From positions 18,918,463 through 18,982,462 of the forward strand of contig NC_080061.1 of the NCBI RefSeq assembly GCF_026212465.1: a stretch of DNA of 64,000 nt, given 5' to 3'. The stretch comes from Amaranthus tricolor (lineage: Eukaryota > Streptophyta > Magnoliopsida > Caryophyllales > Amaranthaceae). Under the pieces are notes generated by a model. That model did no database searches. It saw only the letters and a list, made by a program, of their open reading frames with translations, and was not told where the DNA came from. The translations under genes were made by a program, and so were the position numbers. Below, one piece after another: positions 4,275-26,622 of the stretch. How positions within the stretch are numbered: position 1 is the first letter of the stretch; each line of letters begins with the position of its first letter.

Positions 4275-4292
4275 CACCACTAGTGGAAAAAA
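4275..4292 (+). repeat. CACTA 3' terminal inverted repeat with CAC target duplication
   Basis: CAC at 4275-4277, then CACTAGTGGAAAAAA at 4278-4292. The first ten internal bases contain the self-complementary CCACTAGTGG across the junction. It pairs perfectly with the end at 26623-26637. Confidence 0.95.
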
Positions 4293-4500
4293 CCTCATTT
4301 GCTGCGGTTTTTTGGCCATTATTTGCTGCGGTTTTGGCCCCAAACAATATTAATTAATGGCCTATTTTAAATGCTGTGGTTTAAAACCGCAGCAAAAAAT
4401 GGCATTATTTGCTGCGGTCAGCCCCCAAAACCGCAGCAAATAATGGAACTTATTTGCTGCGGTTTTGGGGGTTGACTGCGGCAAATAGCTATTTTTTTTT
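4293..4500. repeat. CACTA 3' subterminal repeats
   Basis: At least seven copies of a motif close to ATTTGCTGCGGTTTT, in both orientations. One pair forms a nearly perfect 23-bp palindrome at 4372-4394. In En/Spm-type elements such subterminal arrays bind the element-encoded accessory protein (TNPA in maize). That role here is inferred from family knowledge. Confidence 0.85.
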
Positions 4501-4743
4501 CATTTTTTGTTTTATTCTAATAATAATCCAATAATAATGTAGAATGTAATAACAATGATTATCAGATAATAATCCAATGATAATCACAAATAATCACCAA
4601 TAATCTCTTTGTAGTAAAAAATTCTCGATAATATAATATAATATGTACGTACATATATATACAATAATATACATTAAAGTCCTAAAAAAATCTATACTAA
4701 TTACAATTTATCAAGGACAAAAATTAGCAAGATACGCGGCAAT

Positions 4744-5003
4744 CTAATCTTTTAATTCGCGCATCTCTTCACCTCTCAGAGGACGTGTTTCCCTCGGAAT
4801 GTCGTATAAAACCTATAATATAATATAAAATTAAAAGATTCATAAACATTAGATTTTACCAATAATAATAATTTAAGAACGTAACAAATACTTACGGCAT
4901 CTATGTTTTTGACTCCAACCTCCTTCACGCATTTTAAGATATCGTCCATGTATTTGAGAGTGTAGTAGCCGCAATCAACGAAATTAGAAGGTTGTTGAAA
5001 GCA
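4744..5003 (-). pseudogene. CACTA second gene, last two exons: Ulp1/C48-type protease C-terminus
   Basis: Exon 5003-4896 follows a clean acceptor (TTTTCTCTTAG) and ends at a GTAAGT donor. It encodes QQPSNFVDCGYYTLKYMDDI, the glutamine plus catalytic-cysteine motif of Ulp1/SENP-like (C48) proteases. The final exon, 4812-4744, follows an AG acceptor and encodes 22 residues with charged DIPRETRPLRGEEMRELKD before the stop at 4746-4744. These are the 3' exons of the gene that begins at 21876. The exon that should carry the catalytic His and Asp (the HW..LV region) is not found upstream; that space is filled by tandem repeats and a retrotransposon fragment. The exon model comes from splice consensus by eye. 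Confidence 0.8.
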
Positions 5004-5009
5004 CTAAGA

Positions 5010-5571
5010 GAAAATAGATGTTAGTGCCAAAGAAGCATAAAAACGCATAAAATCGCAACTTAATACGTAATTTCTAGCATACGACTATGATTTTCAATTC
5101 TAACCACTTCAACGCAATAATATAGACCAAATAGTGTTGTGTTCCAAGTTTCGTGCAAAACAAACTAAGTTTGAGCTACTTTATGCTCAAAAGTGCCAAA
5201 AACGCTTAAAAACCCTTAATATCGCAACTTAACACGTAATTTCTAGCATATGACAATGATTTTCAATTCTAACCACTTCAACACAATAATATATACCAAA
5301 TAGTGTTGTGTGCCAAGTTTCGTGCAAAACAAACCAAGTTTGAGCTACTTTATGCGCAAACGTGCCAAAAACGCTTAAAAACCCTTAAAATCGCAACTTA
5401 ACACGTAATTTCTAGCATATGACAATGATTTTCATTTCTAACCACTTCAACACAATAATATCTACCAAATAGTGTTATGTGCCAAGTTTCGTGCAAAACA
5501 AACCAAGTTTGAGCTACTTTATGCACAAACGTACCAAAAACGGTTAAAAACCCTTAAAATCGCAACTATGA
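5010..5571 (-). repeat. Satellite-related 170-bp tandem repeats inside CACTA intron, first block
   Basis: About 3.3 copies of a unit with period 169-170 bp; the marker ACGTAATTTCTAG recurs near 5064, 5233 and 5403. In reverse complement the unit aligns along its whole length with monomers of the array at 27560-64000: for example CAAATAGTGTTGTGTGCCAA here corresponds to TTGGCACACAACACTATTTG there. It lies between a GTAC donor near 7200 and the acceptor at 5005, so it is intronic to the Ulp1-type gene. Confidence 0.92.
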
Positions 5572-6300
5572 TTTTCTGTTTCTATTTTAAGTGCCCATGT
5601 ATAGCACGTGCGTTTTAATTAGGCGTGTGCTAATATAGCCATTATGTTAGTTGAGAGCTCTATATAAGGAGAGCCGCACTTGTGTAATAAACAAGACCAG
5701 AAGACAGCAGCTGTAGAGGAACAGAACACAACAGCAGCAGCAACAACCCAGCCCGCTGACCAGCCCACCTTGCAGCATGACCTAGCCTTGACCATGGAGA
5801 TCTGGGCCTAACCAATCTTGGGGACGTCATCTCCATACATAGGCCTAGCCATAAAGGTCAAAGATCCATGCTGGTAGTGCATACAATCGCCTAGAACACA
5901 AGCACAAGGGAACCTAGTTGCTGATCCTAATCAGAACAGCACAACAGCACAACTTGCGACCAGGCCACCTTGCACGACACGTGGAGACCAAACCTGTGCA
6001 CCCAGGACCTGAGCTATAGTAGAAATGGAATCTTCATACAAGGATCTTTCCATCAAGACTCTAAGTGTCCATTTCCAAGCATGGGAAGTCATTCAAAAAG
6101 TGAGCCCAAGGTCACCCAGTCGCCAGTTTTAGTTTGAAGGCATTGTAGAGTATTTTAGTTGTCTGTTATGTTTTTAAGTGTGCAAATGTTTTGCACGTGG
6201 TTGTTTTTAGCCGTTAGAGTATAGAAATCTATAAATAGACTCTAGGCCTCGTGTAAATGTATCCAACATTGATTAATTCAATTTCATTTCTCAAATTCAC
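5572..6300 (+). mobile_element. Ty3/gypsy LTR-type fragment embedded in the CACTA intron repeats
   Basis: The 170-bp repeat pattern stops near 5572 and resumes near 6300. Between them are two similar promoter-like blocks, with CTCTATATAAGG near 5665 and ATCTATAAATAG near 6228. Each is preceded by a TTTTAAGTG...GCACGTG stretch. They flank about 450 bp rich in CAGCAG and GACCAG that resembles the tail of the first Ty3/gypsy element at about 3180-3300. No clear target duplication is visible and no protein can be read. It is a fragment or a small non-autonomous derivative; which one cannot be decided here. Confidence 0.6.
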
Positions 6301-7190
6301 GCGCGAAAGTGCCAAAAACGGTTAAAAACCCATAAAATCGCAACTTAACACGTAATTTCTAGCATATGACTATGATTTTCAATTCTAACCACTTCAACAC
6401 AATAATATATACCAAATAGTGTTGTGTGCCAAGTTTCGTGCAAAAAAAAAACCAAGTTTGAGCCACTTTATGCGCAAACGTGCCAAAAATGGTTAAAAAC
6501 CCTTAAAATCGCAACTTAACACGTAATTTCTAGCATATGACAATGATTTTAAATTCTAACCACTTCAACACAATAATATTTACCAAATAGTGTTGTGTGC
6601 CAAGTTTCGTGCAAACCAGACCAAGTTTGAGCTACTTTATGCGCAAACGTGCAAAAAACGCTTAAAAACCATATAAAATTGCAACTTAACACGTAATTTC
6701 TAGAATATGACAATGATTTTCAATTCTAACCACTTCAACACAATAATATATATCAAATAGTGTTGTGTGCCAAGTTTCGTGCAAAAAAAAACCAAGTTTG
6801 AGCTACTTTATGCGCAAAAGTGCCAAAAACGCATTAAAAACCTTAAAATCGCAACTTAACACGTAATTTCTAGCATATGACAATGATTTTCAATTCTAAC
6901 CACTTCAACACAATAATATATACCAAATAGTGTTGTGTGCTAAGTTTCGTGCAAAACAAACCAAGTTTGAGCTACTTTATGCACAAACGTGCCAAAAACG
7001 CTTAAAAACCCTTAAAATCACAACTTAACACGTAATTTCTAGCATATGACTATGATTTTTAATTCTAACGACTTCAACACAATAATATATACCAAATAGT
7101 GTTGTGTGCCAAGTTTCGTGCAAAACAAACCAAGTTTGAGCTACTTTATGCGCAAAAGTGCCAAAAACGCTTAAAAACGCATAAAATCGA
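6301..7190 (-). repeat. Satellite-related 170-bp tandem repeats inside CACTA intron, second block
   Basis: About 5.2 copies; ACGTAATTTCTAG recurs near 6350, 6521, 6691, 6861 and 7030 (spacings 171, 170, 170, 169). It is the same unit as the first block, and related in reverse complement to the large array. Neighbouring copies are very similar, with no higher-order pattern visible over so few copies. Confidence 0.92.
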
Positions 7191-7200
7191 ATTTGTGTAC

Positions 7201-9310
7201 CTTTATTGCTTTCTATTTTGGAAATGTGGCTCTGAATGTAGATCCCATTTGTCCACGCACTTTTTTCAAAACACATGGGAAAAGTAAGAAAATTTTGTTA
7301 GTAATTCGGTTATTAAAACAATTAAACAACAATGCCTAACTTGTAAGATAGTGAACATCACCTCATGTAGATATGGAAAATAGCTACGTTCAGCATCTTT
7401 CGTCTCAAAAGTTGCCCGATGTCACTAGGACCAATAATTACAAACGGGCTCTCTAAAAAGCAGTATTGCTCCTTCAGCAGGTTCAGAATGATTGGGTCCT
7501 CCTCACTTATGCGAGATGCACAAGTGTGCAGCCATTTGCAATCTTGAGAGAGATCTTTTAGCTCCTCATCAGTCAAAATTGGAGTGCTTGGCATCGACTT
7601 TGACCCAGTCGACACCTTTGCTGAGAAACCGACCTCTCTCCAAGATCCCTTTGGACTCTTTTGCTATTTCAATTTATACAATTAATTTAGTGTAAGCATG
7701 CAATTAAAAAAATAAAAATAAATAAGGTACAAATGATTCTTACCATGTTAGTGAATCGGACCCAAGCATATGGCCATGTGACGAAATACCTAGGGCGTCT
7801 GATAGTTTCTCAAGGCTCCATGCTGGCATTGGAATTGGGAGTGAGAAATCTTCAAACCCCTTTACAATAGTTTCCACGGCCACACTGATGTGGCCACTTG
7901 TAACAGGCATTGAAAGCACTGTTTGGCCCTCTTTGTTTGGCTGGGCCACACCATATGCAACCTCAGTTAAGTCGCCATCACTAGCAACACCTAACTGAGG
8001 CAACAAAAGAGAACAAGGAATCGCCTCCTGAAAATTGTGTCGTTTAGTATAATAAGCATCATAATAAAATATTAAAACGCGTTGCAATTTAAATTAATAA
8101 GTGCTTATATATTTAAAAACTTTGTACCTATAGCACTGGCTCCGGAGTTGGCTCCGGATTTTGAACAACGGAGTTTATGTTCTCCGGTGTGGGGTTTTCC
8201 CCTTTAGGGGTATTAGTAATGGGCTGGGGTGCTACGGGGGTAATGGGCTCGGGTGTTGGCTCGACCAAAGCATTAGGATCCCCATGTTGACTTTCCTGAT
8301 CCTCGACAATCGGGTTTTCCAAGTCAACAACGGGTGCTCTCATCTTCTGCAACACGGCGGCCAGTTTGGCGAGAGCGTCCTTTGTAATCTCCGCAGCGTC
8401 GTTCGGGATTGAGTAGCAACACAATCTTTGCTGAATGCCTTTTGTAGCCCTACGCGGACTCCTCCTTTTCCGACTACCCGCCCACTGTAATCTTTCCCTA
8501 AGAACATATGCAATGCGTCAACATTGCCTCTTGACGTGAACTCCCCCGTAGCTTCTTTTTCCTTCCAGCCCATTTGTTCAAATTAGAAGTGATATATATA
8601 GCAATTAGTATAAGTAAATCAAAGCCAAAAAATACAAAACAAATCAAGAATATACTTAATAATTTCAAAACTCACCACAGCATCAGCAACCTTCTTCGTT
8701 CCCAAATCATTAATGGTAAATTTACCACTTGCATCTCGGGAATGAAGCCCGCAATACCAATCACGCACCCGATCTCCAGCAGGAGTATTCAGGGATGCGA
8801 AGGTAGTCGTAGATGAAGGCGTGGATTAACTTTGATTGGGGTATAAACCCGCATCCACCCACTCTTTTCGGACCTCATCGTACGTTTTCTGGCCCAAGCA
8901 ATGATAAAACTTCCTTTTGCTTGCAGAATCAGAAGCTTTACCACGCTTTTCCTAATTAATCAATAGAAATCGAATGTCATGTATTAGTTTAATGCTGAAG
9001 CAAAAAAAGTAAATTCAAATTGGTAAACTATAATATAATATGAAATTCTTACAACTTCTATGGGAGTTGTTCTTTTGGCAACAAAGGCCTCCCAATCCCT
9101 CTCCGATATGTGACCCCATATTTCGTATGGCATCTTCGAAGGTGATTGCTCTCCACCTTCGTTTCCCGTTTTGACCTTTTTGGTCGTACGGGCACGCCTC
9201 TTCGTAATGCAGCCAGATACTAGCTTGGATTTGAAATCTCTGAATCTTTCAGCAACAGCTGAAAGAAACACATTCTTCTTGTCCTCATCGCTCTTGATAT
9301 GGAAAAGATT
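7201..9310 (-). pseudogene. CACTA second gene, middle exons: Transposase_24-like part and start of Ulp1 region
   Basis: Exons read by splice signals: 9310-9053 (after TTTTTTGTAG; WGHISERDWEAFVAKRT), 8951-8676 (KFYHCLGQKTYDEVRKEWV, then GDRVRDWYCGLHSRDASGKF), about 8573-8128 (GKDYSGRVVGKGGVRVGLQK, then a Pro/Thr-rich linker with PTPEP repeats), about 8028-7744 (EVAYGVAQP, then SLPIPMPAWSLEKLSDALG), about 7672-7362 (DCKWLHTC and SPFVIIGPSDIGQLLRR) and possibly 7259-7201. The first ones match the conserved pattern of plant CACTA accessory transposases (Ptta/En/Spm, Transposase_24). The one at 7672-7362 matches the region just upstream of CACTA-borne Ulp1 domains. Damage: an in-frame TAA in the 8951 exon, a frameshift near 8420, and a stop before the 8126 donor. 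The N-terminal exon is at 21876-21490, beyond the Athila insertion. Confidence 0.8.
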
Positions 9311-9323
9311 CTACAAAAAAATT

Positions 9324-10850
9324 TGATGTATGCATTTTGTACTATATTTTTATGCTCCTTTCCCTTGCATTTTATGGCATTCTGATGTGTGATTTCGCAT
9401 TTTCCATATGGTTTTACGTTTGGTTGGAGTTTTTGTGTGTCTTTGATTATTTCAGGCCATTTTACTCCACTCTTGTATTGGAAGCGGATCACTCCTGAGC
9501 ATTAGAATGCGTGCTTCGAGATTTGGCAGAGTTTGAGACCGCACTACGACACTTTTGTGAGCTCACGGCTCCATTCGGATATGCTTTTAGTCCCGTTGGG
9601 TCTCGTTTGTACTTTTGTCGTGTTCTAATGAAGAAAAGTAAGCACAAGATGATGGGTCCGGGCGAGTATTTTCATACCCGAGCGATTTCAATTGAGAAAT
9701 AGGAATGTAAGCCTCCAAGCCCAAGACCTGGTCGGGTATACTCTAAACCCGGTCGGGTCTGTCAATAATCACTTTCATGAATGTTCAGCTTACGGACCCG
9801 GTCCGGTCTTTCTTAAACCCGGTCGGGTCCTGCGTTTTCTGCTCTGTGGAAAACTCCCAGCACACGGACCCGGTCCGGTCTTCCAGAAACCCGGTCCGGT
9901 CCTGCTTTAATAACCGTTTTTCCGCACGGTTTTTATTTTATGATGAGGAATGTAACAAGGGGGCAAGCAACATTTTCTTCTCTGTTTTTTTAGATATTAT
10001 TAACTCTTCACTTTTGGAGAAAAAACTTTGTAACTTTCGATTACTTTCGTTCATCCTTTGGTATTCAACTTCAAGTATTAATTCTTTATCCTTTCCTTGT
10101 TATTACTTTTAATCATGTTTTATTTAATTAATTCTTGTTTTGTTGCAATCGATATGTGTGGGTAGTTTCTTAATCTAGGGTTAGATGGAACCCTAGCCAT
10201 GATGTTAATGATGAATTATTGAATCCCAATCCCTTTTTATTATGCATAATCCTTGTTCATGCTTGGTTTCTTATGCTAGTTAACTCATGTATTTTCAATA
10301 GAAATTTTGGAAATTGTGGTTAAAGATTCATTCAATTGCTAACGAAAGTTTGAGTTGAATGAATTGCCTTTTAGATCAAGGGCTTGATAATCTTCATGAT
10401 AATAGATAGATTTGATTGTTGGATCTTATAGAATACTATGCTCAATGTCATTACTATACTTGATTCCATGAAAATAGGTTTGATAGTATGGTAGTGAAGG
10501 TAATAGTCTTCGAAAGGAGTTTTTAGTATCTTTAATGGTGTATTCATCCTATTGAACTTGGTTATGATTGTTGTAGGGGTAGTAGGATCTCATTGTCATC
10601 ATATCATGCTAGTGGGGAAGTTTATCCCTAGATGTTTTAGTATCATTGATTTACCTTTCTAATTTAATTGCTTGTATTCTAGTCATTTAGTTAGTTTAGA
10701 CATATATTCTCCAAATTTGTGTGTTACTTAGGATCAATTGGTAGCCGGAAAATAATCATTTACTACATTGTTCCCTGTGGATTCGACCCTAACTGCTGCT
10801 ATACTAGTTGCATATTAAGAATTGTTTGGTAGTACATAAACGACCTATCA
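9324..10850 (+). repeat. Athila 5' LTR
   Basis: 1527 bp, TG...CA ends, matching 19810-21414 over nearly its whole length. It contains the GC-rich CCCGGTCGGG motif cluster at 9725-9904. By eye it differs from the 3' LTR by a scatter of substitutions and lacks a 78-bp rearranged segment found there. Confidence 0.95.
9725..9904. repeat. CCCGGTCGGG motif cluster in Athila 5' LTR
   Basis: Six copies arranged as three pairs of ACCTGGTCGGGT, ACCCGGTCGGGT or ACCCGGTCCGGT, with about 10-20 bp inside a pair. Many copies have short self-complementary arms (ACCCG/CGGGT). The cluster stands out in an AT-rich element. Function unknown. Confidence 0.85.
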
Positions 10851-10855
10851 AATTT

Positions 10856-10873
10856 TGGCGCCGTTGCCGGGGA
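10856..10873 (+). promoter_or_regulatory. Athila primer binding site, tRNA-Asp type
   Basis: TGGCGCCGTTGCCGGGGA begins five bases after the 5' LTR. It is complementary to the 3' end of plant tRNA-Asp, the usual primer of Athila elements by family knowledge. Confidence 0.9.
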
Positions 10874-10995
10874 ACAACGGATTAGTTTATTGTTTACTTT
10901 CTTAGTTTAAATTGATTCTTTTTTTCTGATTTCGCTTTGTTTATGTCCCCCCTCCCCTATCTATTTAACCCTTTGCTTTTAGTTTCTTTTGTTGC

Positions 10996-12240
10996 ATGCA
11001 AACCAGACGACAGGGACATGAACTAGTACCTTTTGACCCTGAAATCGAAGCAACAGCAAGAAGACTCAACTCTAGGCAAAGAAGGCGAAGAAACAGAGAA
11101 GGGAAGATTTAACCATGGCTGAAACACCAGAGAAACCCCTCATGGATTACATCACTCCCGATTCTAGCACTGTCACTACTAGCATTTTGAGGCCAGAGAT
11201 TACCGGGAACCAGTATGAGATTCGGTCAGCATTCTTCAACTGGATTGCTCAGAACCAATTTCATGGTATGGAGAATGAGAACCCAACCGACCACATTAAT
11301 CTATTCATCGACAAGTGCATGACACACAAGTACAACAACATCACTTCCGATCAATTAATGTTGATAGCTTTCCCTTTTTCTCTTGCGGGGGCGGCTAAGC
11401 AGTGGCTATGTGAGGAAGAACCCAACTCCATTGCTACTTGGGAGGCTCTGAAAAAGGCATTCTTGCATTGATACTACGCACCCGGAAAAACTTCAAAGTA
11501 CCGAAATGAAATATCTACTTTCAAACAAAAAGACGAGGGATCACTCTATGATGCATGGGAGAGATTCAAAAGTCTAATTAGAAAGTGCCCATATCACGGA
11601 TTACCAGATTGGATGGTTATTGAGACAGTCTACAAAGCTTTGAGGCATGAAATCCAGACTTCTTTGGATGCTGCTGCTGGAGGTAACTTTATGATGAAAA
11701 CACTAACCCAGGCCAAGAAATTCTTGATGACATGGCCTCAAATTACCACTGGCGAGAACAATCAACTCCAAAGCGAGGTGGTAGGTATGAAGTGGATGCT
11801 ATTGTTGCTTTGACTAATAATGTACAGGCTTTGACAAGGAAGGTTGAGCAATTGGATGTAGCTGCAGTAGATAAAGTCCGTGGTGCTTGTGGCTTAAATG
11901 GGCATTCCAGCGTTGATTGCCAACTTCAAGCCGAAGGGGCTGCTACTGTGGAACAAGTCAACGCCATCCAAAATCAGAATGCCAGACAACAATACAACCC
12001 CTATTCCAACACCTTCAACCCAGGATGGAGGGATCATCCAAATTTCTCCTACAGAAACAACAATGCCCAGAATCCCTCATCCTCGTACAACTTACCATCG
12101 GGTTTCCAACAAAGACCTCCCTTCCCACCTCAACAACAACATCCACCGAAGTCCAACCTTGAGAGCTTGATGGAGAACTTCATTGCTACCCAAAGCAATC
12201 AAAATAAACACTTCAGCACCTCCATTAATTAGATTTTATC
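10996..12240 (+). pseudogene. Athila gag, broken
   Basis: The natural start is probably ATG 10996 (MQTRRQGHELVPFDPEIEA), followed by an Arg-rich stretch. The frame is lost near 11110 and continues from 11115. The capsid-like retrotransposon gag region reads FFNWIAQNQFHG and AGAAKQWLCEEEP (about 11240-11430). TGA 11469-11471 interrupts it where the family has an arginine, and the frame shifts near 11740. A zinc-knuckle remnant CGLNGHSSVDC (about 11888-11920) lacks the first cysteine of CX2CX4HX4C. A Pro/Gln-rich tail follows to about 12230, with stops after it. The protein would normally package the element RNA. Confidence 0.88.
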
Positions 12241-15200
12241 TCACAACAAAATGATCGATACTCAGATGGCTTAGATGGCACAACAATTAAGTAACTTGTC
12301 CATGCAAAAGGGGCAACTTCCGGGAAACACAGAAAAAAAACCCAACCACATCTCCCCATCAGCAACTTAATGCAGTAACTACGAGGAGTGGTAGGACACC
12401 TCATGATCCAGCCCCTAAAGTAAAGACCCCACCTATTGTTTTTCCAGATGCAGGAACTAATGATGATGTTTCTGAAGAAAAGAAGGATGAGCCAGTCAAT
12501 TCAGACAAGCCCACAATTGGCGGTCGAACTTACACACCACCAGTGCCGTTTCCTTCTAGATTGGCATAGGCGAAGCTTGAGCATAAATATGGAAAATTTC
12601 TTCAAGTTTTGAGCAAGCTACAGATCAACATCCCCTTCTTAGAAGCCATTAAGGAAATACCCTCTTATGCTAAATTCCTCAAGGACATCATTTCTAACAA
12701 ACGTAAGCTAGAGGAGAGTGTGGTGGAAACTTTGAATGGGCAATGTAGTGCTATTTGGGATGCAAGGTTCCTAAGAAACAAGCTGATCCTGGTAGTTTTA
12801 CTATCTCGCTGAAGTTGGGGAAATATGTGTCTGCCGTAGCCCTTGTTGATTTAGGGGCTAGTGTGAGTGTGATGCCCTTGACATTATGCAAAAAGATCAA
12901 TGGCGAGATGAAAGCCACTCGAATGTCTATACAATTAGCCGATCGATCTGTGAGATACCCAGTTGCTATTCTTGAGGATTTCCCTGACCAAGTTGGTAAT
13001 TACTTCGTACCCTACGATTTCGTCATCATGGATATGGAAGAGGATGCCCGCATTCCGGTGATTTTGGGTTGTGATTTTTTAAAGACTACAGCAGCCATTT
13101 TTGATGTGAAGAATGGGAAGTTATCACTTGAGATTTTGGGAGAACAGCTGCATTTCCATCTCCCCTCATCCATGGCACATCCTGCCATTGGGGAGACTGT
13201 TTATCGGTTGGATGCGATAGTTGATGCTACTGGAATCCACACCTTCCATTGTTGATCCGCTTTATGCAGCTATTGAGGGCAACTATGAGAAGGATAGAGC
13301 CGATGTGATTGAGATGGTCCAAGTTTTAGATGCTGCACCTACATTTGTTCCTGTCAAAGCTAAGTTTGAGGATATCCCACCTTTGAAGGTGTCCACCATT
13401 GAGGAACGAAAGGAGTGTACTACGCCTCCTCAGGTAGAATTAAAACCTCTTCCCCCTTCTTTGAAGTATGTTTTCCTAGAGGATAATGATACCTACCTTG
13501 TTATTGTCAATGCTGAACTCAATGGCACTCAAATTGAGCGATTGCTCACAGTTCTGAAAAAGTATAAGAGTGTTATTGGGTACACTATTGATGACATCAA
13601 GGGTATTAATCCTTCATTCTGCACTCATAAGATCTTTCTTGAAGATGATCATACCTCTTTTATAGAACCACAACGAAGGCTTAATCCTAATATGAAGGAG
13701 GTAGTCAAGAAAGAAGTTCTTAAACTACTTGAAGCAGGAATAATATTCCCCATTTCAGATAACAAGTGGGTGAGTCCTGTTCAAGTAGTTCCCAAAAAGG
13801 GAGGTATGACCGTTGTAAAGAATGACAAAGGAGAATTGATTTCCACTAGAACTGTCACAGAATGGCGAATGTGTATTGACTATCGCAAGCTGAATAAAGC
13901 CACCCGAAAAGACCATTTCCCTCTCCCTTTCATTGATCAGATGTTGGAAAGAATGGCTAAGCATTCCTTTTTCTGTTACTTAGATGGATACTCAGGTTTC
14001 TTTCAAATTCCCATCCATCCAAGTGATCAGGAAAAGACGACATTCACTTGTCCTTATAGCACCTTTTCATATCGCAGAATACCATTTGGTCTTTGTAATG
14101 CGCCCACCACATTCCAATGATGCATGATGGCAATTTTCTCAGATTTCATTGAAAATATCATGGAAGTTTTTATGGATGATTTCTCGGTTTACAGAACATC
14201 TTTTGATTTATGCTTGCAAAATTTAGAAAAGGTGTTAAGTAGATGTGAGGAAGTCCATCTGATATTGAACTGGGAAAAATGTCATTTTATGGTCCAACAG
14301 GGAATTGTTTTGGGTCATGTGATCTCCAATAGGGTTATTGAGGTCGATAAAGCAAAAATTGATGTGATTGAGCGATTACCACCCCCCACTTCTGTAAAAA
14401 GGGTTCGTAGCTTCCTTGGGCATGCGGGTTTTTACCGCTGCTTCATAAAGAATTTTTCTCAAATCGCTCGTCCATTAACTGAGCTCTTGGACAAAGATAC
14501 CCCCTTTGTGTTTTCTGATGCTTTTGTTGAAGCTTTTAGCAGGTTAAAACAAGTTTTGATTTCTGCACCGATCATCCAACCACCGGATTGGAACCTGCCG
14601 TTCGAGATAATGTGTGATGCAAGTGATTTTGCAGTTGGGGCAGTGTTGGGCCAAAGGAGAACGGCAAACTCCATGCCATTTATTATGCCAGTAAAACACT
14701 TGATGCCGCCCAACTCAATTATGCTACCACTAAAAAAGAGTTGTTGGCGGTAGTGTTTGCGGTGGAGAAATTTCGATCCTGCCTTCTTGGGTCGAAAGTG
14801 ATTGTGCATACAGATCATGCAGCATTGAGGTATTTGATGACTAAGAAAGATGCTAAACCTCGACTGATTCGTTGGGAATTATTACTTCAAGAGTTCAATT
14901 TGGAAGTTAAGGATAAAAAGGGGGTCGAAAACGTAGTAGCTGATCATTTGTCTCGCCTTCTTCTTGAGGATGTTGATGACGGTCCTGCTATAGATGATTC
15001 ATTTCCTGATGATCATCTCTTTGCCATCTCACTTGGCAAAGCACCGTGGTACGCCGACATAGCCAACTTTTTGGCTAATCAAATTCTACCTCATGATCTC
15101 ACTTACCAGCAAAAGAAGAAATTTCTCCATGAAGCAAGGAAGCATTATTGGGATGACCCTAATCTGTACAAGCTTTGTGCCGATACGGTCATTAGGAGGT

Positions 15201-16336
15201 GTATTCCGGAAGATGAGGTAGCATCGGTGATTGCTCATTGTCATGATTTGCCTGCAGGAGGCCATGCCGGGGCCACTAAGACTGCTGCAAAAATCCTTCA
15301 CTGTGCTTTCTATTGGCCTACATTGTTCAAAGATGTTCATGAGTAATGTGCAATCGTGTGATCGCTGTCAGCGTACTGGAAACCTCACTAGGCGGTCTGA
15401 AATGCCTTTAAATAACATTCTTGAAGTAGAGTTGTTTGATGTCTGGGGTGTCGATTTTATGGGACCGTTTCCTTCTTCTTACGGGAACAAGTACATCTTG
15501 GTCGCCGTAGACTATGTCTCCAAGTGGGTGGAAGCCATTGCCACCCCCACTAATGATGCAAGAGTAGTAGCTCGGTTCTTCAAGAGAGTTATTTTCCCTC
15601 GTTTTGGTACACCCCGTGTGTTGATTAGCGATAGAGGGTCACATTTTATAGAAGAGAAGTTCGAGTCTATGTTGAAAAAGTATGGTGTGCATCATCGTGT
15701 AGGTTTGTCATATCACCCCCAAACTAGTGGGCAATAGAGATCTTTAACCGTGAAAACAAGTCCATCCTAGAGAAAACGGTTGCAAGATCAAGGAAAGATT
15801 GGGCTAACAAGTTGGATGATGCTTTATGGGCGTACCGAACTGCTTTCAAGACTCCCATCGGTACCACTCCCTATAGATTGGTGTACGGAAAAGCTTGCCA
15901 TCTCCCCGTTGAACTTGAGCATCGCGCTTATTGGGCTATCAAGGCCCTCAACTTTGATTCGCATGCTTCGGGAGAAAATAGAATGTTACAACTTGCAGAG
16001 TTAGATGAGCTTCACCTTGATGCGTACGAAAGTTCTAAGTTATACAAGGAGAGAACCAAGAGGTGGCATGACAAGCACATCCAAAGGCGTGAATTCAAGG
16101 AAGGAGAACTAGTCTTATTGTTCAATTCTCGTCTCAAGCTATTTCCAGGTCAACTCAAATCCAGGTGGTCTGGACCATTCCAAGTCACCAAGGTCTTCCC
16201 TTATGGTTCTGTAGAAGTTTGGAGCGAGGGGAGCGGTACATTCAAGGTGAATGGGCAACGGTTGAAACATTACCAAGCTGGAGTACCCATTCAAGGGAAC
16301 CAGGTTTATAACCTTTCCCTTCCTTCTTCCTACTGA
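12241..16336 (+). pseudogene. Athila pol: protease, RT, RNase H, integrase, broken
   Basis: Protease with ALVDLGASVSVMPL near 12838-12880; RT with EWRMCIDYRKLNKATRKDHF near 13860-13920 and the FMDD box at 14169-14180; RNase H with [13 protein letters not shown] near 14610-14650 and [10 protein letters not shown] near 14807-14836; an integrase finger near 15230-15370 (RCQRTGN side); a core with [11 protein letters not shown] near 15438 and DRGSHF near 15630; C-terminal [14 protein letters not shown] part to 16336. Breaks: a frameshift between the protease and RT frames near 13240, TGA at 14118-14120 where the family has arginine, frameshifts near 14680 and 15345, and one near 15735 exactly where the third catalytic acidic residue of the integrase should be read. 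Confidence 0.9.
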
Positions 16337-16942
16337 GTTGTTGAAGGAAGTCTAGCTATAGACTATAAATAAAGCGCTTATTGGGAGGCAACCCAAGTTT
16401 TTGAGTTCTAATTTAGATTTTTTGTGATTTGTATGCTTAGTAAAAAAAAAAAAAATTAATAATAATAATAATAATAATAAATTCTGGAAGTTAGCTAAAC
16501 CTGGTCGGGTTTCCTTAAAGACCAGGTCGGGTCCGAGCACACTGCACTTTCACTAAAACTAGGTTGCACAGAAACCCAGTCGGGTTTCACTGAAGACCAG
16601 GTCGGGTCCGTGAGGCAGCAGAAAAACAGAGACTCTGAATTTCAGCAAACCCGGTCGGGTTTAATGGGATACCCGGACGGGTCTTTGAACGGCTGTTTTA
16701 AAATCCGCTTTTCCCTTCTCTTCTCCTCCACTTTCCTCCATACTCATTCTCAAGCTTTCTCTCTCTAAATTTCACCATCTTCACCCTCTTCAAAAATTCC
16801 ATCAAAACACACAAAAAATCCATCAAAAATCACATCTTTCTCTTCCCCTTCCTCCCTTCTTCAACATCCATGCTTCTATTTTCACTCAAACCCTAACTTT
16901 CTCTCTTCTCAAAAAGGGCTCCATTTTCTTTCAAACTCAAGG
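16337..16942 (+). other. Athila spacer between pol and the downstream ORF
   Basis: No protein is readable. It holds a poly-A run, an (AAT)n microsatellite at about 16456-16482, a second CCCGGTCGGG motif cluster (16498-16685), then a CT-rich leader (about 16700-16940) directly before the ATG at 16943. The CT-rich stretch looks like a leader or promoter-proximal region for that ORF; this is inference. Confidence 0.6.
16498..16685. repeat. CCCGGTCGGG motif cluster in Athila internal region
   Basis: Three pairs again, mostly ACCTGGTCGGGT, ACCAGGTCGGGT, ACCCAGTCGGGT, ACCCGGTCGGGT and ACCCGGACGGGT. Pairing and spacing resemble those in both LTRs although the surrounding sequence is unrelated. Confidence 0.85.
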
Positions 16943-18265
16943 ATGTCAAAGAGGCAACGATCTACTACTCGTGGAGCATCATCTTCTCGCGGAGGAAACC
17001 GTCAACCACCAATTCCTTCCGACCCGGAATACCCCGACATCATCTTTCGAGATGAGCATCAACATAAGAAGTTTCTTCAGGTTAAGGTACGGGCTATTCT
17101 TACCTCACGTTTTTTCTGTCATGCATCTTTAAGAGAACTTGGAATTTACAATGCTATGTCAAATCTGTGTGCTGCACTGAATTTCACTACTATGTTCAAC
17201 ATGTATTATAATTCTCACCCTGCATTAGTTTATGAATTCTTAAGTTCTTGTGAGGAAGCAGTGTTAAATGGTGTACATGGCATGTCCTTCCGTTTGTTAA
17301 ATGTTGACCGATTTTTATCTTGTGCTGAACTTGGAGAACTCTTTGGGCTAGATCCTGATTGGGGACTTTTGAAGGGTGCTTCGGGTCAATCTGCTTATGT
17401 AATTTGGAGAAAAATAACCGGAAAGCAGGAATTTGACCCAAAGCATCTAACAATTGCGAATGTGCAACACCCGGTGTTAAGAATTTTCCTGAAATTTCTA
17501 TCTACCACTTTGTTTGCCCGGCATGATCATAGTGCATCTAGGTTAAATCATGTTGCATTCTTGGCTCACGCTCTTAGGAGCAACGCCGATCCTCACCATG
17601 CACTTCCTATGAGAATGGTGAAACATTTGACCGGATTGAACTCTAGGCCTATTAAGTCGGAACTTTTAATTGGTGGTATTGTCACTTGCATTGCTGCCCA
17701 TTTTGGTTTTGTAGACTCTGACGAGAGGCACCCTGACGCCTTGTTCACAACCGGCTTCCTCAAGCATGCCAACTATATTACGGACCAAACCGGTCCTTTT
17801 CTTTGGCATGTTGGGAGGAGAATAATTGTTTTACCATCAAGGAAGCTTCCACCACTTTCCCCTGATTTGCCTCACTACCTGTTATTTCCTCCTGCTGGTT
17901 TTGTGGTTGAGGAGGAATATGATCATTTAGCACAGGAAGATCATGAGGAAGAGGAACACATTCATGACTTCCATCCACCTCACGACCCTCCACTCCATCC
18001 GAGTATTCCTCCTATCCCCCATTCTTACAACCACTTCCAACGCGCTGTCATGACCCAATTTTCTCACTTGAACACCCGGTTAGATGACGTTTCTCAGCAT
18101 ATGGCTCAGTTAGAGCTAGACCAGCGTCGAGCTCTTGAGCCTATTTACGGCCAATTCTATCAAACCGGTGTATTTCCTCAAGGGTTTTCTGAACACCCTT
18201 CTTGGTTTGACCCCACTAGATGGGGCGGTCCTTCTGGTTCTGGAGGTGGTGGTTCAGGCCAGTGA
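16943..18265 (+). CDS. Athila downstream ORF (ATHILA ORF1/env-like position), 440 codons, uninterrupted
   Basis: An open frame of 440 codons starts with a basic, Ser/Arg-rich N-terminus (MSKRQRSTTRGASSSRGG). A globular part follows with RAILTSRFFCHASLRELGIY, HPALVYEFLSSCEEAVL and FRLLNVDRFLSCAELGELFG, the pattern I associate with the ATHILA ORF-1 family (often called env-like by position). Then come an acidic/His-rich hinge (about residues 325-350), a likely short coiled coil (FSHLNTRLDDVSQHMAQLEL, about 370-390) and a Gly/Ser-rich tail. No signal peptide or clear transmembrane segment is visible, so an envelope role is not supported. Its function is unknown. It is notable that it is intact while gag and pol of the same copy are broken. 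Confidence 0.8.
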   Translation: MSKRQRSTTRGASSSRGGNRQPPIPSDPEYPDIIFRDEHQHKKFLQVKVRAILTSRFFCHASLRELGIYNAMSNLCAALNFTTMFNMYYNSHPALVYEFLSSCEEAVLNGVHGMSFRLLNVDRFLSCAELGELFGLDPDWGLLKGASGQSAYVIWRKITGKQEFDPKHLTIANVQHPVLRIFLKFLSTTLFARHDHSASRLNHVAFLAHALRSNADPHHALPMRMVKHLTGLNSRPIKSELLIGGIVTCIAAHFGFVDSDERHPDALFTTGFLKHANYITDQTGPFLWHVGRRIIVLPSRKLPPLSPDLPHYLLFPPAGFVVEEEYDHLAQEDHEEEEHIHDFHPPHDPPLHPSIPPIPHSYNHFQRAVMTQFSHLNTRLDDVSQHMAQLELDQRRALEPIYGQFYQTGVFPQGFSEHPSWFDPTRWGGPSGSGGGGSGQ

Positions 18266-19809
18266 TCATTAATTTGATCTTGTGCCAAACACTGAGGATC
18301 GTGCTTAGACTGGCTTGAGGGGGATAATCACTTCTCATTTACTCACTCATTCATGCATCTGTATAGTTTTATCATTTTCAGCATATAGAGTTAGGTTTTA
18401 CTTTTTCGCATGCATAAAAAAATTAAAAAAAATATAAAAAATATAAAAAAAAGTGTTATGGCTTGATGAGAACTGTTGGAATCTCCTATATATGAGTAAC
18501 ACTGTCCTTTCCCCTAAAATGAATTTCGCAAAATGTTTTGACTGGTATTTTGGCATGTGATACTGTTATTTGGATGTCAGAGGTAAACCGCAGACACTCC
18601 TAATTTGAGAACCAGTTAAGTGGCTTTTAATTGCCTCATGAGCATGAGTAGGTTAGCTGGTGAGTACGCCTAATCAAATGTGTGTGCATTATCTGCTAGG
18701 ATGCCCATTAGGGGCTAGACTGATCTTGACTTTGCTTTACTCCTCCTAGAATTTGACTAGATGTACCTTGTTGAAAACGATTGTCAGGTTTAGATGTTAC
18801 TTAAAACCACATGGACTAAAAAGCCACCTTGCACTACTTGACATTAGGTTTTAGCCCTCTTGAGCTTGAGCCTCTTTTCTTTCAACCCGCATTAATAAAG
18901 CTCCACAATCCCAAAATTTTCCCCTCTACACCTTAGGGAGTGAATTGGCTATCTGAGTTTGATGTTGGTTGTTGGTGTGGTTACCGGTCCATAATTGTAA
19001 AATCTTGAGTTTCTTTTAAAATTCCTTTGTATATAGATAACCCTAAGTATTATTTCCTAAAAAAAAAACCCAAAAGAAACAACAAAAAGAATGTGATTTT
19101 TGTTTGTAGTTATAAATTCAAATAAAAAGGGGTTATATCTTATTCCTCTAGAAGCTCGAAATTTCATTGGTTAAGTTCATTTACGATTGGCTGTATGATG
19201 TTCATGCTCGAAGTGTGTGTAGTTGCGGGAGAAAAGAGTCTTCACTCCCTATTGTCCCTACTAGGTCTCAAATTTTAGCACGACTAATAACCTTAGCCAA
19301 CGTTACTCCCATTATTAGCCTGATTTGATTCTCTTGGTAGTTGAAGTCTATTTTAAAGGAAAAGGATAGCAAAGTTAAAGTGAAAGTCTTTAGAATGTTG
19401 TTTTGCATTGGAGAGATCTTTTTATCCTTCTAAATACATGAGTATGAGAGTTGGGAGGGAAACACTGCTTGGGAATGGAAGTAGTCATTTTTACTACTTC
19501 GGTGTGTGTAATGAGTCTTAAAATCATCAACGATGGAGTGGTGAGTTGCCCCGTGAGTACCTCCTTATTTGATTTATGATGTGTTTACGATGGCCTTAAC
19601 TGGTTACCTTTTAGATGAATCGTGAAAGCCTGATTGCACTATGATATTCCGGATTGATGTTGAGTGCGCCTAAATGCCGAGTCGTTTGAAGTTGCTTTTA
19701 AAAGAATTTCGAAAATTTTGGGGAAGAACTTTGTTGACCTATATGATCTCCACTTTTCTTTGATGGTCCATTTGCTTGGGGACAAGCAAGGGTTTGGCTT
19801 GGGGGAGTT
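18266..19809 (+). other. Athila 3' noncoding region with polypurine tract
   Basis: Long untranslated stretch typical of Athila. It holds a GAGGGGGAT purine run at about 18317-18326, A-rich runs near 18415-18452 and the GGGGGAG tract at 19801-19807 that directly precedes the 3' LTR and would prime plus-strand synthesis. I see no further gene. Confidence 0.75.
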
Positions 19810-21414
19810 TGATGTATGCATTTTGTACTATATTTTTATGCTCCTTTCTTTTGCATTTTATGGCATTCTGATGTGTGATTTCGCATTTTCCATATGGTTT
19901 TACGCTTGGTTGGAGTTTTTGTGTGTCTTCGATTATTTCAGGCCATTTTACTCCACTCTTGTATTGGAAGCGGATCACTCCTGAGCATTAGAATGCGTGC
20001 TTCGAGATTTGGCAGAGTTCGAAACCGCACTACGGCACTTTTGTGAGCTCACGGCTCAATTCGGATATGCTTTTAGTTTCGTTGGGTCTCGTTTGTACTT
20101 TTGTCGTGTTCTAATGAAGAAAAGTAAGTACAAGATGATGGGTCCGAGCGAGTATTTTCATACCCGAGCGATTTAAATTGAGAAATAGGAATGTAAGCCT
20201 CCAAGCCCAGGACCCGGTCGGGTATACTCTAAACCTGGTCGGGTCTGTCAATAATCACTTGCATGAATGTTCAGCTTACGGAGCCGGTCCGGTCTTGCTT
20301 AAACCCGGTCGGGTCCTGCGATTTCTGCTATGTGGAAAACTCTCAGCACACGGACCCGGTCCGGTCTTCCGGAAACCCGGTCTGGTCCTGCTTTAATAAC
20401 CGTTTTTCCGCACGGTTTTTATTTTATGATGAGGAATGTAACAAGGGGGCAAGCAACATTTTCTTCTCTGTTTTTTTAGATATTATTAACTCTTCACTTT
20501 TGGAGAAAAAACTTTGTAACTTTCGATTACTTTCGTTCATCCTTTGGTATTCAACTTCAAGTATTAATTCTTTATCCTTTCCTTGTTATTACTTTTAATC
20601 ATGTTTTCTTTAATTAATTCTTGTTTTGTTGCAATTGATATGTGTGAGTAGTTTCTTAATCTAGGGTTAGATGAAACCCTAGCCATGATGTTAATGATGA
20701 ATTATTGAATCCCAATCTCTTTTTATTATGCATAATCCTTGTTCATGCTTGGTTTCTTATGCTAGTTAACTCATGTATTTTCAATAGAAATTTTTGAAAT
20801 TGTGTTTAACGATTCATTCAATTGCTTTTAGATCAAGGGCTTGAAATTGCTAGTTAACTTATGCTAGTTAACTCATGTATTTTCAAGGGCTTGAAATTGT
20901 GTTTAACGAAAGTTAGAGTTGAATGAATTTCCTTTTAGATCAAGGGCTTGATAATCTTCATGAGAATAGATAGATTTGATTGTTGGATCTTATAGAATAC
21001 TATGCTCAATGTCATTACTATACTTGATTCCATGAAAATAGGTTTGATAGTATGGTAGTGAAGCTAATAGTCTTCGAAAGGAGTTTTTAGTATCTTTAAT
21101 GGTGTATTCATCCTATTGAACTTGGTTATGATTGTTGTAGGGGTAGCAGGATCTCATTGTCATCATATCATGCTATTGGGAAAGTTTATCCCCAGATGTT
21201 TTAATATCATTGATTTACCTTTCTAATTTAATTGCTTGTATTCTAGTCATTTAGTTAGTTTAGACATATATTCTCCAAATTTGTGTGTTACTTAGGATCA
21301 ATTGGTAGCCGGAAACTAATCATTTACTACATTGTTCCCTGTGGATTCGACCCTAACTGCTGCTATACTAGTTGCATATTAGGAATTGTTTGGTAGTACA
21401 TAAAGGACCTATCA
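19810..21414 (+). repeat. Athila 3' LTR
   Basis: 1605 bp, TG...CA ends, followed by the target duplication AAATT. It matches the 5' LTR except for scattered substitutions and about 78 extra bases near 20825-20915 made of locally copied pieces. The GC-rich motif cluster recurs at 20209-20392. Confidence 0.95.
20209..20392. repeat. CCCGGTCGGG motif cluster in Athila 3' LTR
   Basis: Same three-pair arrangement as in the 5' LTR, with small changes (for example GAGCCGGTCCGGTC and ACCCGGTCTGGTC). Confidence 0.85.
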
Positions 21415-21489
21415 AAATTATATTTATTACTGTCAATTAAATTATTTTTAAAATGAAACTAAATGAATAAAAATAGTAAAGTTGCTTAC

Positions 21490-21876
21490 CACAGTATCAT
21501 TCCATAGAGAGTTCTTCAAACCCTCTGGAACCTCGTTCCATGCGTGCAATATGGAAAGCTTGCGGATACATAGGCCCACTTGTTTTCCATATTGCCTACG
21601 CTATTTTCCGCAGGGTTGACCCAATGCATTGTATTCCAAATGCATGGGTTCTGTGACTTTGAAGTTTTTCGTAGGACCTCGCCGTTTTCTTTTCTTACTG
21701 GTAGTGGGAGCATCCATTGGTGGGGCGTCTTTAGTCTCAAAATCATTGTCAATCGGTGGAGCGTCTTCAGCCATACGCTCTTATCTCACAATTTGGTCCT
21801 CTTCACTGTCATAACTACGATGCTCATTATCCGAGGTCTCAATCTCGGGGACAATTTCGTCTCTGAATAGATGCAT
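21490..21876 (-). pseudogene. CACTA second gene, N-terminal exon
   Basis: From ATG 21876-21874 the minus strand reads an acidic leader (MHLFRDEIVPEIETSDNE), a KKRKRRGPTKNFKV basic block and then EYNALGQPCGK, followed by LSILHAWNEVPEGLKN. It ends at a GTAAGC donor (GT at 21489-21488). The RGPT...LGQP..K pattern is typical of the start of plant CACTA accessory transposases (Transposase_24 group). Two in-frame stops are present (after QIVR and after LGQPCGK). The next exon is at 9310, on the far side of the Athila insertion. The reading frame and splice signals join the two sides well, which supports one original gene. Confidence 0.82.
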
Positions 21877-21949
21877 TGTATATCAGTACCTGAAAGAGTA
21901 TGAATAGAAATATATTAGAACATAAGCTAAGTAATATTAAGAATATGAC

Positions 21950-22045
21950 TATGATTTACATTAAGTAATATTAAGAATATGACTAAGAACATAAGCTAAG
22001 TTTCTTGCAAAACAAACCAAGTGCCAAAAAAACTTTAAAAAGCTT
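21950..22045 (-). repeat. Degenerate remnant of the satellite-like 170-bp unit between the two CACTA genes
   Basis: AAGTTTCTTGCAAAACAAAC followed by CAAGTGCCAAAAA and CTTTAAAAAGC matches consecutive parts of the intron repeat (AAGTTTCGTGCAAAACAAAC, TGCCAAAAACGCTTAAAAA), with about 23 bases missing between them. ATATGACTATGATTT just upstream also matches the unit. Confidence 0.65.
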
Positions 22046-22068
22046 TAAATTCATACCTTGTGAATCAC

Positions 22069-25000: not shown

Positions 25001-25379
25001 TCTCATCAACATGATCCACATCCACATCGACATTCTCTTCATCTGTCTCATACCCATCAACATTATCTACTACATCCTCATTGACATCGGCCACATTATT
25101 GACGTCCTCAAAAACACTTTTCTCTTTGTAAACTCTCTCCTCACCATGCCAAACCCAAACATGATATTGAGGCCTAAACCCACGTAGAAGTATGTGCTCC
25201 CTAAGGATATCAACACTATCTACCTTTGATACATTGCCACAACTGACACATGGGCAATAAAAACCAACTACCCCCGTCCTAAGTTGATGTTCAACCGCAA
25301 TACTACAAAATTCTAATACGCCATCAATAAATTCCGACGATTCAATGCTTCCATACATCCAAGAACGATCTTTTGTCAT
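22069..25379 (-). pseudogene. CACTA TNP2-type transposase, broken
   Basis: The start is taken as MTKDRSWMYGS at 25379, where similarity to the Transpos_assoc domain begins (about residues 4-80, CPCVSC and ILLRGFRPQYHVWVWHGE). An Asp/Glu-rich linker follows, then the Transposase_21 (tnp2) core with CPNDCVLYR and ECPRCGLSRYK cysteine pairs, and LDVMHIEKNVCDAILGTL near 23740. Next is a DUF4218 region (about 23540-22703; YFPPSFFDIMVHLIVHLVRE) and a DUF4216-like part (VKWLAFGPRDDVNIYEGYEV, near 22660-22600), ending at TAA 22071-22069. Breaks: in-frame TGA 23804-23802, a frameshift at the homopolymer near 23576-23585, TGA at 22705-22703, and lost frame near 22380. TNP2-type proteins cut and join the element ends. 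This copy cannot make a full protein. Confidence 0.92.
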
Positions 25380-26339
25380 CCTAATTAGTGTGATTAATTG
25401 ATTCAAAACAAAATTAATACACAACTTTTAAACATATATACTTATTTATAATAAACATATTTAACCCTAAAAATATATACTTTGAATAATTAACATTGTA
25501 TAACCTTAGAAATATAACGTTTAGAATATAAATAATAAAATCAAATCATTTAACCTTAGAAATATAAGTATTCTAATTCTAATAATTAAAGGCAAGTATA
25601 ACAACAAACCACATTTTTAACAAAATATGCAAATAATTAACAAACCACACACAAACCACATTCACAAACAATAAAAATATAAACTTGCAAATTTACAAAA
25701 CAAATAGAAATTACCTTGATTTCGTGGGTTATGTAATAATCTACAAAGAAAAAAAATTAATTAGCACTAATTTTCATAATTCGTATGCAGTAGAAGAATA
25801 ATTCGTATGCAGTAGAAGAATAATTCGTATGCAAAGCACATTAAAAAGAGAAATATAATAATAATTGGTATGCATTAGATTTTTAAAGCAGTATTAGATT
25901 AACAAGTCCTTTAAGTTTTGAAGATTTTTCATATGCAGTAGATTAACAAACCACATTTTAAAGGTTTTTCGTATGTATTGAAATTAAAAAGTGAAATAAT
26001 ACCTTAATTCGTGAGTTTTGAAGATGAACAAGACCAAATGCCTTTGGTTTCAAACGATTTTGAAGAATGATGATGAACAAGAACACAGTAGAAGAACAAC
26101 AGCAAGGATTTACGTTTGTGAACAAGAAGTTTGATTTCTGGGTTTGTGAAAATGAAGATGAACACAAGAAACAAACACAAATCTTGATGCTTAATCTTAT
26201 ACGTTTGTGAAGATGAAGAAGAGGAACGTAGCAAATGAAAATGAAGATGAAGCGTTTTTTCAAAGGGTTCGTTTGAGAGAACAAAGCAAAGTGTATACGT
26301 ATTTGTGAAGGGTTTTGTGAAAAAAGAAACTGGAGGGTT
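25380..26339 (-). other. CACTA 5' region upstream of TNP2 gene
   Basis: AT-rich, no protein similarity recognised. It contains a short tandem repeat at about 25776-25835 (unit AATTCGTATGCAGTAGAAG plus a few bases, about 2.6 copies of 22 bp). It should contain the promoter and leader of the transposase gene, but I see no unambiguous TATA box. Open frames of about 110 codons here are Ser/Phe-rich low-complexity readings and are not called. Confidence 0.55.
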
Positions 26340-26622
26340 TTTAATTAAATTAATGTCCAACGTTCATTTGCTGCAGTTCAAACTAAACCGGAGCAATTAA
26401 AAAATTTGTGAAAGGTTATTTGCTGCGGTTCAAGCAAAACCGGAGCAATTAATGTATTTGTGAAGAATTATTTGCTACGGTTCAAGCAAAACCGGAGCAA
26501 TTAATGTATTTGTGAAGGGTTATTTGCTGCGGTCCCATGGAAAACCGCAAAAATTAATTTTTTTTTTCTAATTCATTTTCCTATTTATTGCTGTGAATAT
26601 ACAAAAACGACAGCAAATACAT
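26340..26622. repeat. CACTA 5' subterminal repeats
   Basis: Four direct repeats of about 55-60 bp, each containing ATTTGCTGCGGTTCAAGC or a variant followed by AACCGGAGCAATTAA; the last has AAAACCGCAAAAATTAA. They share the GCTGCGGTT core with the other end of the element and lie just inside the terminal inverted repeat. Confidence 0.88.

What the first reader, a model, noticed from the sequence alone, without database searches (positions are those of the whole stretch)
5010..7190. Transposon-borne version of the satellite: CACTA intron repeats and the 36-kb array are one repeat family
The 170-bp tandem units in an intron of the CACTA second gene align end to end, in reverse complement, with the 168-bp monomers of the array, including the shared core (CAAATAGTGTTGTGTGCCAA versus TTGGCACACAACACTATTTG) and the following TAGAATTGAAAA segment. 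Unit length, order of blocks and phase agree. Tandem repeats inside transposable elements are known to seed satellites in plants; the reverse, capture of satellite by an element, is also possible. Within the CACTA the units lie in the sense direction of the gene, have no HOR pattern and have a relative elsewhere in the element. That favours an old, element-resident repeat as source. The direction is inference.
Basis: partly seen in the sequence, partly recalled or inferred. Interest (0 to 1): 0.88.

Follow-up and report, generated by a model that had tools for sequence, protein, structure and literature searches.

The report
Transposon intron carrying amaranth satellite DNA
A CACTA "jumping gene", in a genome that is probably an amaranth's, holds inside a predicted intron a short row of the same 169-letter repeat that makes up a huge array nearby; these copies match the repeat published from grain-amaranth centromere regions better than they match that array, so the transposon likely carries this DNA around the genome but is probably not the parent of the array beside it.

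Summary
Eight full 169-bp units lie in a 22.4-kb CACTA element (4278..26637), inside a predicted intron (7200..5004, minus strand) of its second gene. Their consensus is 86.9% identical to the array consensus (score 123; best of 1000 shuffles 28.5). A search of papers by sequence identifies the repeat: the 169-bp putative centromeric repeat of Amaranthus hypochondriacus and the pericentromeric satellite AmC4. The CACTA consensus is about 90% identical to both and groups with them (support 100) against all ten array monomer types. So this copy is probably not the parent of the array, nor its direct offspring; a 100-N gap also separates them. Without repeat block and insert the intron would be 30 nt. 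The units look star-like, as if grown in place from one monomer. A decayed monomer, equally far from CACTA and array consensus, fills another intron-like stretch of the element. I read this as an old, intron-resident satellite that the CACTA family carries. Which came first, satellite or element copy, is open; no other copy of the family could be examined at DNA level.

The parts
4278..26637 (-). CACTA (En/Spm) element, genes on the minus strand; ends CACTAGTGG...CCACTAGTG, triplet CAC outside both ends; contains a nested Athila-type retrotransposon
   Evidence: ends and flanks read; tnp2
23802..25427 (-). tnp2 transposase reading frame (Transposase_21, Transpos_assoc)
   Evidence: Pfam PF02992 E 1.1e-82, PF13963 E 5e-16
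22703..23563 (-). continuation of gene 1, DUF4218
   Evidence: PF13960 E 7e-33
4738..9310 (-). second gene (ORF2), downstream exons; broken in this copy (in-frame stops, changes of frame, Ulp1 His/Asp segment absent)
   Evidence: 83% identity to A. tricolor P0121, which matches Peptidase_C48; alignment; translations
21448..21780 (-). first part of ORF2, cut off from the rest by the Athila insertion
   Evidence: aligns with P0122-P0125
5004..7200 (-). predicted intron of ORF2 that holds the repeat block; GT at 7200-7199, AG at 5005-5004; 30 nt lie outside the block
   Evidence: splice neighbourhoods; P0121 reads ...WTAIK CFQQP... across the junction
5023..5567 (-). satellite block, part 1 (3 full units)
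5568..6300 (.). about 0.73 kb of foreign DNA interrupting the block
   Evidence: no match to the rest of 1-27460 at E 1e-3 with 5501-6400 masked
6301..7189 (-). satellite block, part 2 (5 full units)
21890..22056 (-). intron-like GT...AG stretch between gene 1 and ORF2, mostly one decayed monomer (I1); splicing predicted by eye only
   Evidence: score 70.5 against shuffle maximum 42.5 (CACTA consensus), 82 against 50 (array consensus), 61.5 against 45.5 (AmC4), 500 shuffles each; 81.4% identical to both consensus units on 86 columns
27460..27559 (.). gap of 100 N between element flank and array
27560..64000 (+). satellite array, 217 monomers of about 168.5 bp in a ten-monomer higher-order repeat (abacdefghi); runs off the window

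Best explanation
The CACTA element holds, as nearly the whole of a predicted intron of its second gene, a tandem block of a 169-bp Amaranthus satellite whose closest relative among those compared is AmC4 and not the array next door, and it likely acts as a long-term carrier that moves small satellite blocks around the genome. Shown: homology, position between ORF2 exons, the subfamily grouping, star-like unit divergence, and a second decayed monomer in the same element. Inferred: because the intron would be spliced out, the block can grow and drift without harming the element's proteins; one monomer was amplified in place; each jump of an intact family member would put a ready-made satellite seed at a new site, where unequal exchange could enlarge it. 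The neighbouring higher-order-repeat array belongs to another branch of the family and was probably not seeded by this copy. Whether the monomer first arose in the element or in a free satellite is not settled; I hold the two about equal.
For: Homology against shuffles. CACTA consensus 90.5% to the A. hypochondriacus repeat (single units 85.2-89.9%) and 89.9% to AmC4; array consensus 84.6% and 85.7%. At 23 columns where CACTA and array consensus differ, AmC4 and the A. hypochondriacus repeat each have the CACTA state at 15, the array state at 5, neither at 3. Tree of 20 rows: CACTA + published against array, SH-aLRT 99.9-100, bootstrap 100. Only 30 of 2197 intron bases lie outside the block and its insert (sequence). 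Units star-like: 48 substitutions in 8 units, 29 singleton and 6 informative columns. The block looks older than the nested Athila: 3.55% per unit from consensus, against 2.9% between the two LTRs, i.e. about 1.5% per LTR. Decayed monomer I1 equally far from both consensus units.
Against: No second copy of this CACTA family was seen at DNA level, so carriage through transposition is not shown. This copy's ORF2 is broken. Splicing is predicted, not observed. With I1 added to the tree it fell beside one CACTA unit on a long branch with weak support (93/64), and the bootstrap of the CACTA + published branch fell to 89. CACTA units share more states with AmC4 or the A. hypochondriacus repeat (6 of 48, expected 2.4, P 0.029) and with the array consensus (8 of 48, expected 3.8, P 0.028) than chance, though not with the array types at large (21 of 48, expected 17.8, P 0.20); this hints at inherited satellite variation rather than growth from one unit.
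Confidence: 0.5

Rival explanations
1. Satellite first: a piece of AmC4-type satellite was captured into the ORF2 intron and replaced the former intron body; the element is only a vehicle.
For: The satellite family is more diverse than the CACTA units (array monomers 72-100% alike, CACTA units 90-97%). AmC4 is a clustered pericentromeric satellite by FISH (PMC11678860, passages). A C. quinoa CACTA carries a 171-bp satellite array near its 3' end, read by its authors as capture (PMC8978399, passages and section 10). Slight excess of states shared with AmC4 and the array consensus.
Against: A captured piece of an array like the one in the window would bring in monomers about 76-80% alike, not 93.5%; a piece of a more uniform AmC4 array would not. 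It needs two captures (block and I1), each leaving an intron of only 30 nt (block) or about 38 nt (I1) besides the repeat.
Confidence: 0.4
2. This CACTA copy seeded the neighbouring array.
For: Same family, same scaffold, same unit length.
Against: The array types form one side of a branch of about 0.095-0.10 with support 99.9-100, and the CACTA units sit with AmC4. A 100-N gap lies between. Array types differ among themselves (75-84% between types) nearly as much as from the CACTA units (73-79% on average per position), so on an even clock the array's diversity is older than the CACTA units' common ancestor.
Confidence: 0.05
3. The resemblance is chance between AT-rich sequences or an assembly artefact.
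For: Both are AT-rich; there is a gap in the scaffold.
Against: Score 123 against a shuffle maximum of 28.5; published sequences from other amaranths match both; the block has ORF2 exons on both sides.
Confidence: 0.02

Closest known systems
AmC4 satellite of A. cruentus (AmH9 in A. hypochondriacus; PMC11678860) and the 169-bp putative centromeric repeat of A. hypochondriacus (PMC5577786)
   Same: 169 bp, collinear over the whole unit, about 90% identical to the CACTA consensus and 85-86% to the array consensus
   Different: There described as pericentromeric or putative centromeric satellite; the passages read make no link to a transposon
CACTA elements of Chenopodium quinoa with a 171-bp satellite array (PMC8978399, passages and section 10)
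   Same: CACTA with tnp2, array of about 170-bp units near the 3' end, same plant family
   Different: The quinoa monomer shows no similarity here: its score against CACTA consensus, AmC4 and array consensus was reached by 87, 49 and 19 of 200 shuffles (the printed sequence has 169 letters). There 32.5 copies, read as capture; no intron position in the section read
Jozin tnp2-derived satellite CficCl-61-40 of Chenopodium (PMC7320549, abstract and outline seen)
   Same: CACTA as source of a major satellite in Amaranthaceae
   Different: Monomer of about 40 bp from coding tnp2 sequence; here the repeat is intronic and 169 bp
Ogre 3'UTR tandem repeats and pea satellite PisTR-A (as told in the review PMC9659126, passages)
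   Same: Tandem repeat in a non-coding part of an element, related to a satellite
   Different: LTR retrotransposon and 3'UTR, not a DNA transposon's intron

Membership tests
CACTA (En/Spm) transposon | CACTA terminal inverted repeats | tested here: met
   CACTAGTGGAAAAAA at both ends
CACTA (En/Spm) transposon | 3-bp target-site duplication | tested here: met
   CAC before 4278 and after 26637
CACTA (En/Spm) transposon | tnp2 transposase | tested here: met
   PF02992 E 1.1e-82
CACTA (En/Spm) transposon | intact, autonomous copy (bears on activity, not on class) | tested here: not met
   ORF2 has in-frame stops and lacks the Ulp1 His/Asp segment
Amaranthus 169-bp satellite, AmC4 subfamily (CACTA-borne units) | same unit length and end-to-end homology | tested here: met
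   169 bp, 89.9% identity, no gaps
Amaranthus 169-bp satellite, AmC4 subfamily (CACTA-borne units) | closer to AmC4 than to the other monomer types compared | tested here: met
   support 99.9-100
Amaranthus 169-bp satellite, AmC4 subfamily (window array) | closer to AmC4 than to the other monomer types compared | tested here: not met
   the ten array types lie on the other side of the branch
Amaranthus 169-bp satellite | pericentromeric clusters | not testable with these tools
   no chromosome data for the window
C. quinoa 171-bp CACTA-borne satellite | sequence homology of the monomer | tested here: not met
   87, 49 and 19 of 200 shuffles reach the scores against CACTA consensus, AmC4 and array consensus
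Satellite born from a transposon | repeat present in element copies that predate or lie far from the arrays | not tested
   no other copy of the family reachable at DNA level; the genome search did not answer in 7 tries

The most novel reading that the evidence does not exclude
The 169-bp centromere-associated satellite of amaranths began as the body of a CACTA transposon intron: an intron-sized, intron-phased unit, still present once (decayed) in one intron and amplified in another, left the element and grew into centromeric arrays.
Probability: 0.2. Interest if true: 0.85.

Novelty: new variant of a known kind. Interest (0 to 1): 0.55.

Why it matters
Where centromere satellites come from is an old open question. 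Here the repeat that two papers place at amaranth centromere regions is found as nearly the whole of a transposon intron, with diagnostic columns that tell transposon-borne from array-borne units. That makes the direction testable with published amaranth genomes. It also warns that maps of the 'centromeric repeat' made by sequence matching may count CACTA-borne copies (inference).

Tried and rejected
Local seeding of the array by this CACTA: rejected because the tree puts the array types apart. Homology with the quinoa 171-bp CACTA satellite: tested against three monomers, none found. Exact-pattern scans for pieces of the repeat, one of viral contigs and one of prokaryote contigs: 0 matches each. 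Pfam on single ORF2 and gene-1 pieces at E up to 10: 9 of 10 pieces without a family, one weak DUF4216 below its cut-off. I1 as outgroup: placed with weak support, so I do not use it as a root. A tree of peptides encoded by the repeat in 15 metagenome proteins (31 of 43 matched stretches, those of 38 residues or more, were used): 10 of 15 proteins have a unit in one clade with 7 of 8 CACTA units and both published repeats (95/90), with short CACTA branches. But 50 residues, changes of frame inside units (C3 fell elsewhere) and a query taken from a CACTA unit make it weak; I do not lean on it. Species of the window: not settled; Amaranthus is likely.

Full report
What is there. The window holds a CACTA element at 4278..26637: CACTAGTGG at one end, CCACTAGTG at the other, the triplet CAC outside both ends, and on the minus strand a tnp2 transposase (PF02992, E 1.1e-82) with DUF4218. 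A nested Athila-type retrotransposon splits its second gene; its two LTRs differ at 45 of 1532 aligned bases. After the element come about 0.25 kb of flank, an (AT)n run, 100 N at 27460-27559, and a satellite array from 27560 to the window's end.

The repeats. TRF and nhmmer find eight full 169-bp units at 5046-5548 and 6329-7175, minus strand, and 216 or 217 monomers in the array. The array is a ten-monomer higher-order repeat, abacdefghi, with two shortened seven-monomer copies; monomers ten apart are 97.6% alike, twenty apart 95.4%, thirty apart 93.3%. CACTA units are 90-97% alike (mean 93.5%), array monomers 72-100% (mean 80.5%), CACTA to array 68-83% (mean 75.7%). The consensus of the CACTA units and the consensus of the array types agree at 86.9%; the score of 123 compares with a mean of 12.1 and a maximum of 28.5 in 1000 shuffles.

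Which repeat it is. Searching papers for the letters of the core found one paper, PMC5577786; a topic search turned up PMC11678860, and a second search by letters found both and no other. PMC5577786 gives a 169-bp monomer as the putative centromeric repeat of A. hypochondriacus (passages). PMC11678860 gives AmC4, 169 bp, clustered in pericentromeric regions of A. cruentus and A. hypochondriacus by FISH, and 88% identical to a tandem repeat in exon 3 of an A. tricolor non-coding RNA (passages). The CACTA consensus is 90.5% and 89.9% identical to these, single CACTA units 85.2-89.9% to the first; the array consensus 84.6% and 85.7%. At the 23 columns where CACTA and array consensus differ, each published repeat has the CACTA state at 15, the array state at 5 and neither at 3. 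In trees of 20 rows (10 array type consensus units, 8 CACTA units, 2 published) the CACTA and published rows stand against all array rows with SH-aLRT 99.9-100 and bootstrap 100, inner branch about 0.095-0.10; the CACTA units by themselves have SH-aLRT 79-83 and bootstrap 82. The root is not inferred. The array beside the element is thus a cousin, not the closest relative, of the units in the element.

Which plant. Of the first 11 relatives of the tnp2 frame, 3 are unnamed, 6 are from Beta (3), Spinacia, Silene and Chenopodium, and one each from Cuscuta and Orobanche. Of the 6 relatives of ORF2 found, 3 are from A. tricolor (the best 83% identical), 1 from A. hypochondriacus, 1 from Beta, 1 from Spinacia. 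With the satellite this points to Amaranthus; the species is not identified.

Where in the gene. Of the five ORF2 relatives scanned, A. tricolor P0121 and Beta P0125 match the Ulp1 peptidase domain Peptidase_C48; the other three match no Pfam family. P0121 reads WTAIK CFQQP without a break; P0122 and P0125 also cover the place without a break. In the window the same residues are split: the exon ends at 7201, the intron starts GTACACAAATT, the block follows at once, and the intron ends AACATCTATTTTCTCTTAG before TGCTTTCAACAACC at 5003. Of 2197 intron bases only 11 + 19 are outside the block with its inserted 0.73 kb. From general knowledge 30 nt is too short for a plant intron, so either a monomer was the intron body or a captured block replaced it. 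This ORF2 copy is broken: it has in-frame stops and changes of frame and lacks the segment with the Ulp1 His and Asp; P0122 lacks that segment too.

A second monomer. Between gene 1 and ORF2 a GT...AG stretch at 22056..21890 aligns with a whole monomer, with deletions: 70.5 against a shuffle maximum of 42.5 (CACTA consensus), 82 against 50 (array consensus), 61.5 against 45.5 (AmC4), 500 shuffles each. In a sliding scan of the element outside block and Athila (308 window-strand scores) the three best places were the overlapping windows here; the next separate one scored 46.5. On 86 columns that I chose as safely aligned it is 81.4% identical to both consensus units and 76.7% to AmC4; at 13 columns where CACTA and array differ it has the CACTA state at 6, the array state at 6, another at 1; on the mean over single units it is nearer to the CACTA units (80.0%) than to the array types (73.1%). 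So it may be about as old as the split of the subfamilies, if it decayed at an ordinary pace. In both introns the monomer begins at nearly the same phase (GATTTTAAG) within 4-11 nt of the donor, by eye; I guess the chance of that at roughly one in ten.

How the block grew. Among the eight units 29 variable columns are singletons and 6 are informative; the units carry 48 substitutions from their consensus (1 to 11 each), 3.55% per base. That is star-like, as after amplification of one monomer, and on an even clock older than the Athila insertion. Against this, 6 of 48 substitutions give the AmC4 or A. hypochondriacus state (expected 2.4, P 0.029) and 8 give the array consensus state (expected 3.8, P 0.028), driven by few columns, while 21 give a state of any array type (expected 17.8, P 0.20). 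This fits some inherited satellite variation.

Reading. I take the CACTA family as a long-term carrier of the satellite, with the repeat sheltered in introns. The steps not shown are splicing, presence in other copies, and any array seeded by a jump. The capture reading is nearly as likely and has a close precedent in C. quinoa (PMC8978399, section 10 read), whose monomer shows no similarity to this one. On print: the listings of searches (25, 25, 15, 15 and 3 papers shown of 67, 199, 46, 129 and 3) showed no title or abstract start that ties AmC4 or the A. hypochondriacus repeat to a CACTA element; of Amaranthus papers I read passages of PMC5577786, PMC11678860, PMC12651990, PMC9847342 and PMC12581244 only.

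Noticed in passing
27560-64000: The array is a regular ten-monomer higher-order repeat (abacdefghi, about 1.685 kb) with two seven-monomer copies (abafghi); similarity falls with distance (97.6, 95.4, 93.3, 91.7% at 10, 20, 30, 40 monomers), a sign of local exchange.
   Followed up: partly
26885-27559: A run of (AT)n ends in a 100-N gap. PMC12581244 says remaining gaps of the A. tuberculatus assembly appear tied to AT-rich repeats (passage), which would fit that species but does not show it.
   Followed up: no
about 9313-21417: Athila-type retrotransposon nested in the CACTA ORF2, LTRs 2.9% different, with an ATHILA ORF-1 match at 16769-18265.
   Followed up: partly
5568-6300: About 0.73 kb of unidentified DNA with two TATA-like stretches interrupts the satellite block; by eye the block resumes out of phase, so it is not a simple insertion with a short duplication.
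   Followed up: no
1-3400: Ty3/gypsy pol remnant with stops (RNase H, integrase zinc binding, SH3_Tf2-1) outside the CACTA.
   Followed up: no
P0127-P0141 (metagenome proteins): Fifteen predicted proteins from ENA metagenomes are translations of this satellite. Some (such as P0127, P0132) read FSHKVV/EMVRI-like where the CACTA units read FAHKVA/EVVRI, by eye, so a further variant may exist.
   Followed up: partly
A. [quoted passage not shown] CACTA-borne copies could add to such maps (inference).
   Followed up: no
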